This document shows positions 1 through 57,599 of a DNA stretch of 64,000 bases, in pieces (within the stretch, counting starts at the first letter, position 1; every line of letters starts with the position of its first letter). This stretch comes from an uncultured Prevotellaceae bacterium. GTDB taxonomy: Bacteria > Bacteroidota > Bacteroidia > Bacteroidales > Bacteroidaceae. The stretch spans positions 1-64,000 of the forward strand of contig CAMVAT010000008.1 in assembly GCA_947165505.1 (NCBI GenBank), read 5' to 3'. A model generated the notes under the pieces. It made no database searches and was not told where the DNA came from. It was given only the letters and a program-made list of their open reading frames with translations. A program made the translations under genes and the position numbers.

Positions 1-112
1 AAAGGGAAGTTAAAGGGAAGTTAAAGGGAAGTTAAAGGGAAGTTAAAGGGAAGTTAAAGGGAAGTTAAAGGGAAGTTAAAGGGAAGTTAAAGGGAAGTTA
101 AAGGGAAGTTAA
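1..112. repeat. Tandem array, 11-bp unit (agttaaaggga, about 10 copies); may continue left of the window
   Basis: Direct reading: aaagggaagtt repeated without interruption from base 1. Confidence 0.97.
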
Positions 113-115
113 GTT

Positions 116-490
116 TCAGTCTCGGATGCCTTTGTTTTCATTGATTGCTTTACAGTAGGCATTGAGATTGTAGCTCGCTCCATCAATTTTGTATGAAAGT
201 TGATGGAATTCGTCATCTGAAATATACATCAAATCTTTCGATAAAATAATATAACATCTACATTCTTCAAGACTTCCTTGGGCAATGTTCATAAAGCGTA
301 GTTTGTCTGCTTTGCTTAGTTTCTTCGATCCCTCGGCAATATTGGCTACTATCGAAACGGCAGCACGCTGAAATTGAGATGCTAAACCATATTTCTCAAA
401 GTCTGGATATTTGCGAGTGACTTGATATACCATTAAGACAAACTCATAGGATTTTTGCCATGCAATAATATCTTTAAAACTAAATGCCAT
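116..490 (-). CDS. Four-helix bundle protein (S23 / 23S rRNA-intervening-sequence family, Avd-like)
   Basis: 124 aa; motifs FKDIIAWQKSYEFV, GLASQFQRAAVSIVANIAEGS and GSLEECRCYIILS are typical of the family. Confidence 0.9.
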   Translation of the reverse strand: MAFSFKDIIAWQKSYEFVLMVYQVTRKYPDFEKYGLASQFQRAAVSIVANIAEGSKKLSKADKLRFMNIAQGSLEECRCYIILSKDLMYISDDEFHQLSYKIDGASYNLNAYCKAINENKGIRD

Positions 491-497
491 AGTAATG

Positions 498-552
498 TCC
501 TTTTCACTTCCTTTTCACTTCCCTTTCACTTCCCTTTCACTTCCCTTTCACT
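498..552. repeat. Tandem array, 11-bp unit (tccctttcact, 5 copies), inverted relative to the left array
   Basis: Reverse complement agtgaaaggga differs from left unit agttaaaggga at one position. Confidence 0.95.
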
Positions 553-556
553 TCAT

Positions 557-2095
557 TTATTTCAGCGCCTTGTTGAGCATGTAGTAAACCTCGTTGTTCT
601 GCAGCTGCTGCTTGAACTCGTAGGTCTTGGTGTCTTTGTTGATCTTCACGTATTCCAGACCGAGAATCTCTGCGAAGTCTTCCCAGTATTCCTCGGTGAT
701 GTCGTACGAGAAGGCGCTGTGGTGCGTGCCACCGGCCAGGATCCAGGCTCCGGCACCCACCTCGAAAGTGGGCTGGGGCACCCAGAGGGCTGACGCCACG
801 GGCAGGTTGGGCATGGGTTTGGGCTCGATGCACTCCACCTCTTGTGAGATGAGGCGGAAGCGGTTGCCCAGATCGACGACGGTGGCCTTGATGCCGCGGC
901 CTACCTTCGATGTGAACACCAGACGGGCGGTCTGCTCCTTGCGGATGCCGATGCCGAGGAAGTGCACTTCGAGCTTGGGTTTGTCAACGGCGATGAGCGG
1001 ACATACCTCGAGCATGTGGCTCTGCAGGCACGAACTGCGGTCGCCGGCGAAGTTGAGCGTGTAGTCCTCCAGGAACGAGCAACCCGTGGGCATGCCCTGC
1101 TGGATGACCCACAGCGTGCGGTAGAGGCAGGCGGTCTTCCAGTCGCCCTCGGCTCCGAAGCCGTAGCCCTCGGCCATCAGGCGCTGCGAGGCCAGACCGG
1201 GTATCTGGTCGAAACCAAGGAAGTTGGGATCGTTGATGTCGGCGTCGCCCAGATCGTCGAAGTTGGTGGTGAAGGCGGTGGCACCCTCGTCTTTGAGCAC
1301 CCGGCGCAGGGCGATCTCAGCCTTGGCTGCGTTCTTCACTTTCTGCCAATAGACCTCTTCGCCGCTCTCGTCAATCTTGATGGTGTACATCTTCTTGTAT
1401 TCCTCGACCAAGGCGTCGGCCTCTTCGTCGGTCACCTTCTTCAGGTAGTCCATCAGACTGCTCACGGGATAGTAATCGACATGGTAGCCCAGACGCTGCT
1501 CAAACTCCACACGGTCGCCGTCGGTCACAGCCACGTTGTTCATGTTCATGCCGAACATCAGGCAGCGCACGTTGTGGGCATCGGCAATACCGGCGCACAC
1601 GCGGGCCCACACGGCGATGCGCTTCTGGGCCTCTTCGCTCTTCCAATAGCCGCAGACCACCTTGCGAGGCACGCGCATGCGGGTGCAGATGTGTCCGAAC
1701 TCGATATCGCCGTGGGCGCTCTGGTTCAGGTTCATGAAGTCCATGTCCATCGTGTCCCAGGGTATCTCGGCATTGTATTGTGTGTGGAAGTGGAGCAGGG
1801 GTTTCTGCAGGGCCTGCAAGCCCTTGATCCACATCTTGGCGGGCGAGAAGGTGTGCATCCATGTGATGATGCCCACGCACTTGTTGTCGTTGTTGGCGGC
1901 TTTCATCACGTTTTCCACTTCTTGGCTGCTGTTGGCGGTGCCTTTATACACCACCTTGATGGGGATGATGCCGCTGTTGTTCAGTCCATCCACCATTTCC
2001 TTACTGTGGCCGTCCACCTGTACTACTGCGTCGCCACCATAGAGCAACTGTGCGCCAGTCACCCACCATAGTTCTAAATTCTCGAAATATTTCAT
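557..2095 (-). CDS. araA: L-arabinose isomerase
   Basis: 512 aa; MKYFENLELWWVTGAQLLYG start, WMHTFSPAKMWI and HFHTQYNAEIPW motifs. Confidence 0.95.
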   Translation of the reverse strand: MKYFENLELWWVTGAQLLYGGDAVVQVDGHSKEMVDGLNNSGIIPIKVVYKGTANSSQEVENVMKAANNDNKCVGIITWMHTFSPAKMWIKGLQALQKPLLHFHTQYNAEIPWDTMDMDFMNLNQSAHGDIEFGHICTRMRVPRKVVCGYWKSEEAQKRIAVWARVCAGIADAHNVRCLMFGMNMNNVAVTDGDRVEFEQRLGYHVDYYPVSSLMDYLKKVTDEEADALVEEYKKMYTIKIDESGEEVYWQKVKNAAKAEIALRRVLKDEGATAFTTNFDDLGDADINDPNFLGFDQIPGLASQRLMAEGYGFGAEGDWKTACLYRTLWVIQQGMPTGCSFLEDYTLNFAGDRSSCLQSHMLEVCPLIAVDKPKLEVHFLGIGIRKEQTARLVFTSKVGRGIKATVVDLGNRFRLISQEVECIEPKPMPNLPVASALWVPQPTFEVGAGAWILAGGTHHSAFSYDITEEYWEDFAEILGLEYVKINKDTKTYEFKQQLQNNEVYYMLNKALK

Positions 2096-55548: not shown

Positions 55549-55590
55549 AGAGGTAAGAGGTAAGAGGTGAGAGGTGAGAGGTAAGAGATA
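55549..55590. repeat. 7-bp tandem repeat (agaggta/agaggtg)
   Basis: Direct reading. Confidence 0.93.
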
Positions 55591-55645: not shown

Positions 55646-55662
55646 AGGCAGGGGGCAAGGGG

Positions 55663-55719
55663 CAGGAGATGAGTTGTGGGACGACAGTGAGAAATCGTTT
55701 TCCACGCTGTAGGGGCGGG
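55663..55719. repeat. Left arm of 57-bp inverted repeat
   Basis: Reverse complement at 56517-56573 with one mismatch. Confidence 0.95.
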
Positions 55720-55768
55720 TCACTGTGCCCGCCCGCACGAGCGAAGCGAGTTCCCCCTTCCCCTCGAC

Positions 55769-55819: not shown

Positions 55820-55914
55820 TACTCCCTCCCCTCGGGGAGGGTCGGGGAGGGGGCTCTCACTCGGGGAGGGTCGGGGAGGGGGCTTTCTCTCAGGGGAGGG
55901 CCTTAGAGGGGGCT
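55820..55914. repeat. Three consecutive C/G-rich hairpin/G4 repeat copies running into the phosphoesterase 3' end
   Basis: tactccctcccctcggggagggtcggggagggggctctcactcggggagggtcggggagggggct... Confidence 0.9.
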
Positions 55915-56396
55915 AACGTCACCACCTCGCAGTCTTTCATCTCGCTCCCGTCGATGGTCAGTCGTACCAGGGTGCGCTCTTTCTGCCATCCCTGCATGCC
56001 TGCGGCGCCGGGGTTGATGTGCAACAGACCGAGCGTCTTGTCGTATTGCACCTTGAGAATATGCGAGTGGCCGCTGATGAACAGCTGTGGCGGCGAGGCG
56101 TAGATGCGGTTGCGGATAGAGGCGTCGTAACGTCCGGGGTAGCCCCCGATGTGTTTCATCAGCACGTCCACCTCTTCGCATTTCCATCGGAGTATCTCGG
56201 GGAACATCCGTCGCAGGTCGCCGCCGTCGCAGTTGCCGCAGACGGCTCTCAACGGGCGGAAGGCCGCCAGTCGCTCTGCCAGTTCCACCGAGCAGATGTC
56301 GCCCGCGTGCCATATCTCGTCGCATGGCTCCAGATATGTCAGATACTGTTCATCCCAGTAGGAGTGCGTATCACTGATGATGCCTATTTTTTTCAT
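55890..56396 (-). CDS. YfcE/MJ0936-type metallophosphoesterase
   Basis: MKKIGIISDTHSYWDEQYL, HAGDICSVEL, VCGNCDGGDLR, SGHSHILKV; start moved from 56420. Confidence 0.93.
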   Translation of the reverse strand: MKKIGIISDTHSYWDEQYLTYLEPCDEIWHAGDICSVELAERLAAFRPLRAVCGNCDGGDLRRMFPEILRWKCEEVDVLMKHIGGYPGRYDASIRNRIYASPPQLFISGHSHILKVQYDKTLGLLHINPGAAGMQGWQKERTLVRLTIDGSEMKDCEVVTLAPSKALP

Positions 56397-56414
56397 GTGT
56401 TTCTTTGTTATAAG

Positions 56415-56453
56415 ACCCATCCCCCGGCCCCTCCCTTGTAGGGAGGGGAGTGG
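56415..56453. repeat. C/G-rich hairpin/G4 repeat, inverted near-copy of 36538-36575
   Basis: gacccatcccccggcccctcccttgtagggaggggagtgg. Confidence 0.88.
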
Positions 56454-56474: not shown

Positions 56475-56523
56475 GGTGCACGGTCATGTGCCCCGTCGTA
56501 GGGGCGGGTAACTGTGCCCGCCC
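56475..56523. repeat. 49-bp direct repeat, copy 1
   Basis: ggtgcacggtcatgtgccccgtcgtaggggcgggtaactgtgcccgccc. Confidence 0.95.
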
Positions 56524-56573
56524 CTACAGCGTGGAGAACGATTTCTCACTGTCGTCCCACAACTCATCTCCTG
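56517..56573. repeat. Right arm of 57-bp inverted repeat
   Basis: Reverse complement of 55663-55719 with one mismatch. Confidence 0.95.
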
Positions 56574-56609
56574 CCCCCTGCCCCTTGCCCCAAAGCACAC
56601 CTCTCACCT

Positions 56610-57559: not shown

Positions 57560-57564
57560 AGCAT

Positions 57565-57599
57565 ACCTCTTACCTCTTACCTCTCACCTCTCACCTCTA
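57565..57599. repeat. 7-bp tandem repeat (acctctt/acctctc) encoding the MATE C-terminus and stop
   Basis: Reads E-V-R-G-E-R-stop on the minus strand. Confidence 0.93.

What the first reader, a model, noticed from the sequence alone, without database searches (positions are those of the whole stretch)
1..556. Four-helix-bundle gene bracketed by inverted 11-bp tandem arrays next to the araA stop codon
Seen: at least 10 copies of agttaaaggga on the left and 5 copies of the near-identical agtgaaaggga in opposite orientation on the right, enclosing one 124-aa gene. The right array ends 5 bp from the araA stop codon and forms the gene's own leader, where each unit carries a Shine-Dalgarno-like AAAGG. 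Known: the family includes 23S rRNA intervening-sequence proteins and resembles Avd of diversity-generating retroelements, and standalone members have no settled function. Inference: gene plus arrays may be a small mobile unit, possibly mobilised in trans, whose insertions leave tandem-repeat scars.
Basis: partly seen in the sequence, partly recalled or inferred. Interest (0 to 1): 0.75.

Follow-up and report, generated by a model that had tools for sequence, protein, structure and literature searches.

The report
Mobile four-helix-bundle gene with array ends
A small bacterial gene of unknown function turns out to sit, across many phyla, between two mirror-image strings of short repeats that behave as the ends of an insertion element, and gene-less copies of these ends are scattered through some genomes, which gives a first testable idea of what this very common gene family does.

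Summary
A PF05635/TIGR02436 four-helix-bundle (FHB) gene (116-490, minus) lies between inverted 11-bp arrays (1-112; 498-554). Base 1 is the contig end, so the left array is truncated.

It is no local oddity. All three FHB genes of this genome are bracketed by inverted arrays, each with a different unit. In 20 genus regions 18/22 FHB genes are bracketed, against 11/343 other genes (p=2e-19). Across phyla 49/87 are, against 5/87 in direct orientation.

It is an insertion element. One orthologous site holds a 549-bp element in one species, 2-10 bp in three others, and gene-less hairpins in further ones. The araA and hutU-hutH sites are also occupied or empty by species. Capped arm ends occur up to 59 times per genome, often as convergent gene-less pairs, enriched in genomes with the matching FHB subfamily (9/38 against 1/112, p=2e-5).

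Within one copy the arms match each other better than they match other copies. There is no G-U wobble bias, so the symmetry looks DNA-level. Nine of 11 element-bearing genomes lack any reverse transcriptase.

Best reading: REPIN/RAYT-like elements built on a non-transposase protein. Mobility is well supported; the mobilising role of FHB is inferred.

The parts
1..112 (-). 3' arm of the element: tandem array, unit AAAGGGAAGTT on the + strand (AACTTCCCTTT in gene sense), 10.2 copies, cut by the contig end at base 1; starts 3 bp after the gene's stop codon
116..490 (-). four-helix-bundle gene, 124 aa, PF05635 / TIGR02436, AWQ/ANIAEG subfamily; nearest solved relative 2GSC (XCC0516, E 2e-19)
   Evidence: sequence inspection
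498..554 (-). 5' arm: tandem array, AAGTGAAAGGG in gene sense, 5.2 copies, inverted relative to 1-112; also the gene's leader, with AAAAGGA 7 bp before the ATG
557..2095 (-). araA (L-arabinose isomerase), neighbour whose stop codon abuts the element; the same 3' site is empty, or occupied by other bracketed genes, in relatives

Best explanation
The unit is an insertion element: 5' array - FHB gene - inverted 3' array. The arrays, with a short cap at their inner ends, are the element's own ends. Shown: presence or absence at orthologous sites, fixed arm polarity relative to the gene, gene-less derivatives with the same capped arms, association of these copies with the matching FHB subfamily, and concerted change of the two arms. 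Inferred: the FHB protein (a pentamer in the solved relative XCC0516) binds the tandem units or the hairpin they form and brings the ends together, acting on its own element and in trans on gene-less copies, as RAYT is thought to act on REPINs. Cutting and copying would be left to host replication and repair enzymes, because the element encodes no nuclease, transposase or reverse transcriptase. The symmetry of each copy would arise because one arm templates the other through a fold-back (hairpin) intermediate at DNA level.
For: Bracketing: 18/22 FHB genes against 11/343 other genes in 20 regions of 20 kb plus the window (Fisher 1.7e-19). 68/107 inverted against 10/107 direct in Bacteroidota. 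49/87 against 5/87 in 80 loci from many phyla. Insertion: the L067 site holds 549 bp in G004, 10 bp in G045, 2 bp in L248, 3 bp in L025, and none in L022; G065 has a gene-less hairpin with capped arms in a 141-bp gap, and L014 and L269 have gene-less hairpins of other units. hutU-hutH holds an FHB element only in G000, and 20 relatives have 51-221 bp there. The araA 3' site holds FHB elements in 5 loci and is empty in several others. Gene-less copies: AGGAGTTAAGACAA 59x in G053, 38x in G045, 25x in G065, control about 0, with convergent pairs 43-124 bp apart. Association with AWQ-type FHB: >=8 copies in 9/38 against 1/112 genomes, p 1.6e-5. In 7 of the 10 genomes with the most capped arms an AWQ-type FHB gene itself carries that cap or nearly so. 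Concerted arms: within-element score 22-27 against 12-14 between elements with 55-70% identical proteins; 9 of 11 gene-less hairpins carry the same unit variant in both arms, 1.5 expected, p < 5e-6. DNA level: 69 sense-wobble against 86 antisense-wobble mismatches, 160 transversions.
Against: No transposition has been observed and no target-site duplication could be defined. FHB copies inside a genome are mostly divergent, so bursts of gene-bearing copies are absent. G127 has 9 capped arms without an AWQ-type FHB. The genome-level association is not corrected for phylogeny, and after discounting the FHB elements' own arms the low-threshold tests are weak (p 0.02-0.04; >=6 copies still p 7e-5). 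Most of the 20 G045 capped-arm loci examined belong to a ~190-bp element whose outer ends (AAGTTTCGCA) match the flanks of a Y1 transposase gene, so that burst may be RAYT-driven. About a third of FHB genes show no detectable arms.
Confidence: 0.6

Rival explanations
1. The FHB gene is a passenger. Array-ended hairpins are mobilised by another enzyme, most likely a Y1 (RAYT/IS200-like) transposase, and sometimes trap a gene between two arms.
For: Y1_Tnp genes are present in 9 of 11 element-bearing genomes. In G045 the Y1 gene is flanked by AAGTTTCGCA, which is also the outer end of the ~190-bp gene-less element there. GxxExxY (PF13366) genes have the same bracket (20/30), so the bracket is not exclusive to FHB.
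Against: None of the Y1 loci carries the capped arm. Hairpins in G053 and G004 lack the AAGTTTCGCA ends. A passenger would not hold a fixed polarity and bracket the same protein family across phyla. Copy number follows the FHB subfamily.
Confidence: 0.2
2. RNA-level element like the 23S rRNA IVS: the arms pair in the transcript, and selection keeps an RNA stem that is cut by RNase III.
For: The same protein family and terminal inverted repeats occur in IVS elements, and the Coxiella IVS has tandem heptamers (GACAGAT) upstream of its S23p ORF (PMC4990558). Arms can form long stems (DNA fold, z -16.8).
Against: No excess of G-U pairs in the sense transcript, 69 against 86. None of 20 tested loci lies in rRNA. 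Gene-less copies lie between protein genes.
Confidence: 0.1
3. Ordinary slippage-prone simple repeats of Prevotella intergenic DNA that happen to flank the gene in mirror orientation.
For: This genome is rich in dispersed heptamer arrays (GAGGTRA: 248+229 overlapping matches with one mismatch allowed), including in-frame ones in hutU.
Against: Controls: 11/343 other genes and direct orientation 10/107. The window's unit occurs nowhere else in 211 kb of this genome. Slippage does not explain mirrored unit variants or empty sites.
Confidence: 0.05
4. Retroelement-like: arrays made by a reverse transcriptase in trans, with FHB as an Avd-like helper.
For: FHB resembles Avd (NF033474 37 bits, below cut-off 80; PF22296 30 bits, below cut-off 40). 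PF05635 and Avd are reported as homologous (PMC10053308).
Against: No PF00078 match in 9 of 11 genomes, among them G053, G065 and G004 with a dozen to dozens of copies and 98-99% completeness.
Confidence: 0.05

Closest known systems
REPIN / RAYT systems (PMC3116915)
   Same: One gene flanked by the repeats; many gene-less inverted pairs that fold into hairpins; extragenic; copies track the cognate gene type
   Different: The gene is a four-helix bundle with no Y1 catalytic domain; arms are tandem 7-11 bp arrays with a cap rather than a single short palindrome; the gene-bearing unit itself is present or absent at orthologous sites
23S rRNA intervening sequences with S23p ORF (Coxiella, Leptospira; PMC4990558)
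   Same: Same protein family (PF05635), terminal inverted repeats around the ORF, tandem heptamers before the ORF in Coxiella
   Different: Not in rRNA; arms are arrays with locus-specific units; dispersed gene-less copies; no sign of selection for RNA pairing
MITEs / insertion sequences
   Same: Terminal inverted repeats, occupied and empty sites, gene-less derivatives
   Different: No transposase in the unit, no target duplication seen, ends differ in sequence from copy to copy while matching within a copy
Heptamer arrays: cyanobacterial STRR (own knowledge); Xanthomonas GGGAATC arrays with 70-75 inverted pairs (PMC4692102)
   Same: Short intergenic tandem arrays, in Xanthomonas often in convergent pairs
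   Different: Not linked there to an FHB gene in that paper; here the link is explicit
DGR accessory protein Avd
   Same: Fold family and weak profile similarity
   Different: No reverse transcriptase in most of the genomes tested, this one included

Membership tests
PF05635 / TIGR02436 four-helix-bundle protein | Profile match above the curated cut-off | tested here: met
   120.8 bits against 33.8; 110.6 bits against 24
23S rRNA intervening sequence | S23p-type ORF between terminal inverted repeats | tested here: met
23S rRNA intervening sequence | Lies inside a 23S rRNA gene | tested here: not met
   The window element abuts araA; no rRNA in 20 relatives' loci
23S rRNA intervening sequence | Arms conserved as an RNA stem cut by RNase III | tested here: inconclusive
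   No G-U asymmetry (69 against 86); cleavage itself not testable
REPIN/RAYT | Dispersed gene-less inverted pairs of the repeat | tested here: met
   (for the GGAGTTAAGACAA arm type, not for the window's own unit)
REPIN/RAYT | Cognate gene flanked by the same repeat | tested here: met
   7 of the 10 genomes with the most capped arms
REPIN/RAYT | Gene is a Y1 tyrosine transposase (PF01797) | tested here: not met
   Gene is PF05635; Y1 loci lack these arms
DGR (Avd) | Reverse transcriptase present | tested here: not met
   No PF00078 in G000
DGR (Avd) | Avd equivalog score | tested here: not met
   37.1 bits, cut-off 80
Insertion sequence | Occupied and empty orthologous sites | tested here: met
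Insertion sequence | Transposase gene in the unit | tested here: not met
   Only the FHB ORF
Insertion sequence | Target-site duplication | tested here: inconclusive
   Empty sites of 2-10 bp between genes are too divergent to define it

The most novel reading that the evidence does not exclude
PF05635 four-helix-bundle proteins define a widespread class of mobile DNA that has no transposase, integrase or reverse transcriptase. The protein recognises tandem-array ends, moves its own unit and gene-less hairpins, and each new copy has one arm templated by the other, so that end sequences drift freely while staying symmetric. rRNA intervening sequences would be one lineage of it.
Probability: 0.4. 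Interest if true: 0.93.

Novelty: new variant of a known kind. Interest (0 to 1): 0.8.

Why it matters
PF05635 genes were found in 131 of 150 genus genomes and 116 of 148 phylum genomes, up to 16 per genome, yet standalone members have no known function. The bracket, the empty sites and the gene-less copies point to mobile DNA, make the old idea that rRNA intervening sequences are mobile testable, and give bench workers defined DNA ligands. It may also explain why this family turns up next to CRISPR genes in surveys: it inserts inside cas operons on cyanobacterial plasmids.

Tried and rejected
Extending left of base 1: impossible, contig end. FHB as mobiliser of the abundant GAGGTRA heptamer arrays of this genome: not supported, because G018 and G073 have such arrays without FHB genes, and G059, G088 and G116, whose FHB arms use that unit, have few. 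RNA-stem selection: no wobble asymmetry. Reverse transcriptase in trans: absent in 9/11 genomes. Link to rRNA in 20 loci: none. Phages: no tblastn match. Pooled within-copy against between-copy identity of gene-less hairpins showed no difference, because some arms carry an inserted GCTCGTTTCACTCGC-like block and fall out of register; the ungapped subset of 11, chosen after seeing this, gives the clear signal. The first DNA fold was of a truncated copy and is disregarded.

Full report
1. Observation. The window opens inside a perfect 11-bp array (AAAGGGAAGTT x 10.2, 1-112). A 124-aa minus-strand gene follows (116-490), then an inverted 11-bp array (x 5.2, 498-554), ending 2 bp from the araA stop codon. 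The gene is a PF05635/TIGR02436 four-helix-bundle (FHB) protein; its nearest solved relative is XCC0516, 2GSC, a homopentamer according to PMC4990558. Window base 1 is base 1 of contig C8 of a 3.85-Mb, 115-contig assembly, so the left array is cut off.

2. The bracket is a property of the gene family. G000 has three FHB genes; all are bracketed by inverted arrays with three different units: 11-mer; AGTTAAGGG; and GGGGCAA heptamers. I scored the best local inverted alignment between the upstream and downstream 250 bp, with the same alignment in direct orientation as control. In 107 Bacteroidota genes 68 reach 14 inverted and 10 direct; at 18 it is 52 against 2 (the script stopped only when saving its output). 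In the window and 20 regions of 20 kb from genus genomes, 18 of 22 FHB genes but 11 of 343 other genes pass (Fisher 1.7e-19). In 80 further loci from Pseudomonadota, Nitrospirota, Chloroflexota, Planctomycetota, Acidobacteriota, Verrucomicrobiota, Patescibacteria and others, 49 of 87 pass against 5 of 87 direct. In the arms that pass, the sense strand of the 5' arm is C-poor (9% C). Arms often end on the gene side in a cap such as GACAATA or GACAAATG.

3. It is an insertion. (a) At the L067 locus G004 has a 549-bp FHB element between two genes. The same junction holds 10 bp in G045, 2 bp in L248, 3 bp in L025 and none in L022. In G065 it holds a gene-less hairpin with capped GGAGTTAAGGAGT arms within a 141-bp gap; in L014 and L269 gene-less hairpins of quite different units. 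(b) hutU-hutH: the FHB element is only in G000, with the hutU stop codon lying in the first array unit; 20 relatives have 51-221 bp there, including gene-less inverted arms in L200 and L206 and a solo array in L185. (c) araA 3' end: FHB elements in L104, L108, L109, L114 and L120 (the last of another FHB type with TTGAAAA arrays); no insertion in for example L105, L110 and L118, where the kinase gene follows at once; a broken GxxExxY gene between inverted arrays in L133; short solo arrays in L117 and L125.

4. Gene-less copies and their link to the gene. The capped arm end AGGAGTTAAGACAA is absent from 118 of 150 genus genomes but occurs 59 times in G053, 38 in G045, 25 in G065, 16 in G028 and 13 in G004 (reversed-pattern control about 0), often as convergent pairs. 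Fetched copies are hairpins of two arms around a short spacer, without a gene; one folds into an almost perfect stem (z -16.8). Genomes with an FHB gene of the AWQ subfamily (>=54% identical to the one in G045; the next matches are <=42%, apart from partial or broken ones, of which a truncated 77% one was counted) have >=8 capped arms in 9/38 cases, against 1/112 without (p 1.6e-5). After discounting the arms of the FHB elements themselves, 8/38 against 1/112 have >=6 (p 7e-5). In 7 of the 10 genomes with the most capped arms an AWQ-type FHB gene carries that cap or nearly so. The association is not corrected for phylogeny. The window's own unit has no gene-less copies in the 211 kb of G000 examined.

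5. The two arms change together. Mean arm-arm score inside an element is 22-27, but only 12-14 for the same arm in elements whose proteins are 55-70% identical (baseline 8). In 11 ungapped gene-less hairpins, 9 carry the same unit variant in both arms; shuffling gives 1.5, p < 5e-6. RNA pairing should leave G-U pairs in the sense strand; instead there are 69 sense-type and 86 antisense-type transitions and 160 transversions. The symmetry therefore looks like DNA-level templating or gene conversion. That one arm templates the other is inference.

6. Who moves it? No reverse transcriptase match (PF00078) in 9 of 11 element-bearing genomes. Y1 transposases are present in 9 of 11 but none is flanked by these arms. 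One caution: most of the G045 copies examined belong to a ~190-bp element whose outer ends AAGTTTCGCA also flank a Y1 transposase gene of that genome, so part of that burst may be RAYT-driven. GxxExxY (PF13366) genes share the bracket (20/30), so FHB is not the only gene found in such units. I judge that mobility of the unit is shown by comparison, and that the FHB protein as end-binding factor is the most likely but unproven step.

7. Known context. IVS elements in 23S rRNA carry the same ORF between inverted termini, and Coxiella's has heptamers before the ORF whose number differs between strains (PMC4990558). REPIN/RAYT is the closest working analogue (PMC3116915). Xanthomonas, the source of XCC0516, has 70-75 convergent pairs of GGGAATC arrays (PMC4692102); whether they flank its FHB gene was not tested. 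Full-text searches found no paper that links FHB genes to flanking arrays, but the library is incomplete.

Noticed in passing
L134-L163 (PF13366 loci); L133 after araA: GxxExxY (PD-(D/E)XK-like) genes are also multi-copy in this genus and bracketed by inverted arrays (20/30 loci), with units such as CACAGAGTT, CACGGATTT and CGCAGATTT; many also have direct repeats nearby.
   Followed up: partly
window 55549-55587, 57564-57598 and G000 genome-wide: G000 holds about 200 dispersed GAGGTRA heptamer arrays (357 exact overlapping matches), several times more than any of 149 congeners (next about 57); what spreads them is unknown.
   Followed up: partly
window 55647-55740 and 56500-56593: A calcineurin-like phosphoesterase gene (55890-56420, PF12850) lies between ~90-bp inverted repeats that include GGCAGGG/CCTGCCC heptamers; a cytidylate kinase-like gene lies beside it within a larger inverted pair.
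   Followed up: partly
L001:84-150: In-frame heptamer arrays (CTCAAAY and TGCCCCC) lie inside the urocanate hydratase gene at a linker that is variable between species; two relatives (L185, L191) appear to have similar repeats there in other orientation.
   Followed up: yes
L354-L372 and L397 (G045): A ~190-bp, nearly identical gene-less element in many intergenic places combines FHB-type arms with outer ends AAGTTTCGCA that also flank a Y1 transposase gene: a composite of two element types.
   Followed up: partly
L049: This FHB protein carries an in-frame tandem repeat (DLDVNNDLDVDDDLDVDDDLDVN) in the loop region before the last helix, as if an array had expanded inside the gene.
   Followed up: no
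L423, L425 (cyanobacterial plasmids): FHB genes sit inside cas operons (between cas10/cmr2 and cmr3; between cas6 and cas4), flanked by short arrays, inverted in L423 and direct in L425; probably passengers rather than CRISPR components.
   Followed up: partly
L050 (G094): Three FHB genes, 86-97% identical, lie within 8.5 kb, each with inverted GTTCAAAAGCAGCAAAGCTGC-type arms: a local cluster of similar copies.
   Followed up: no
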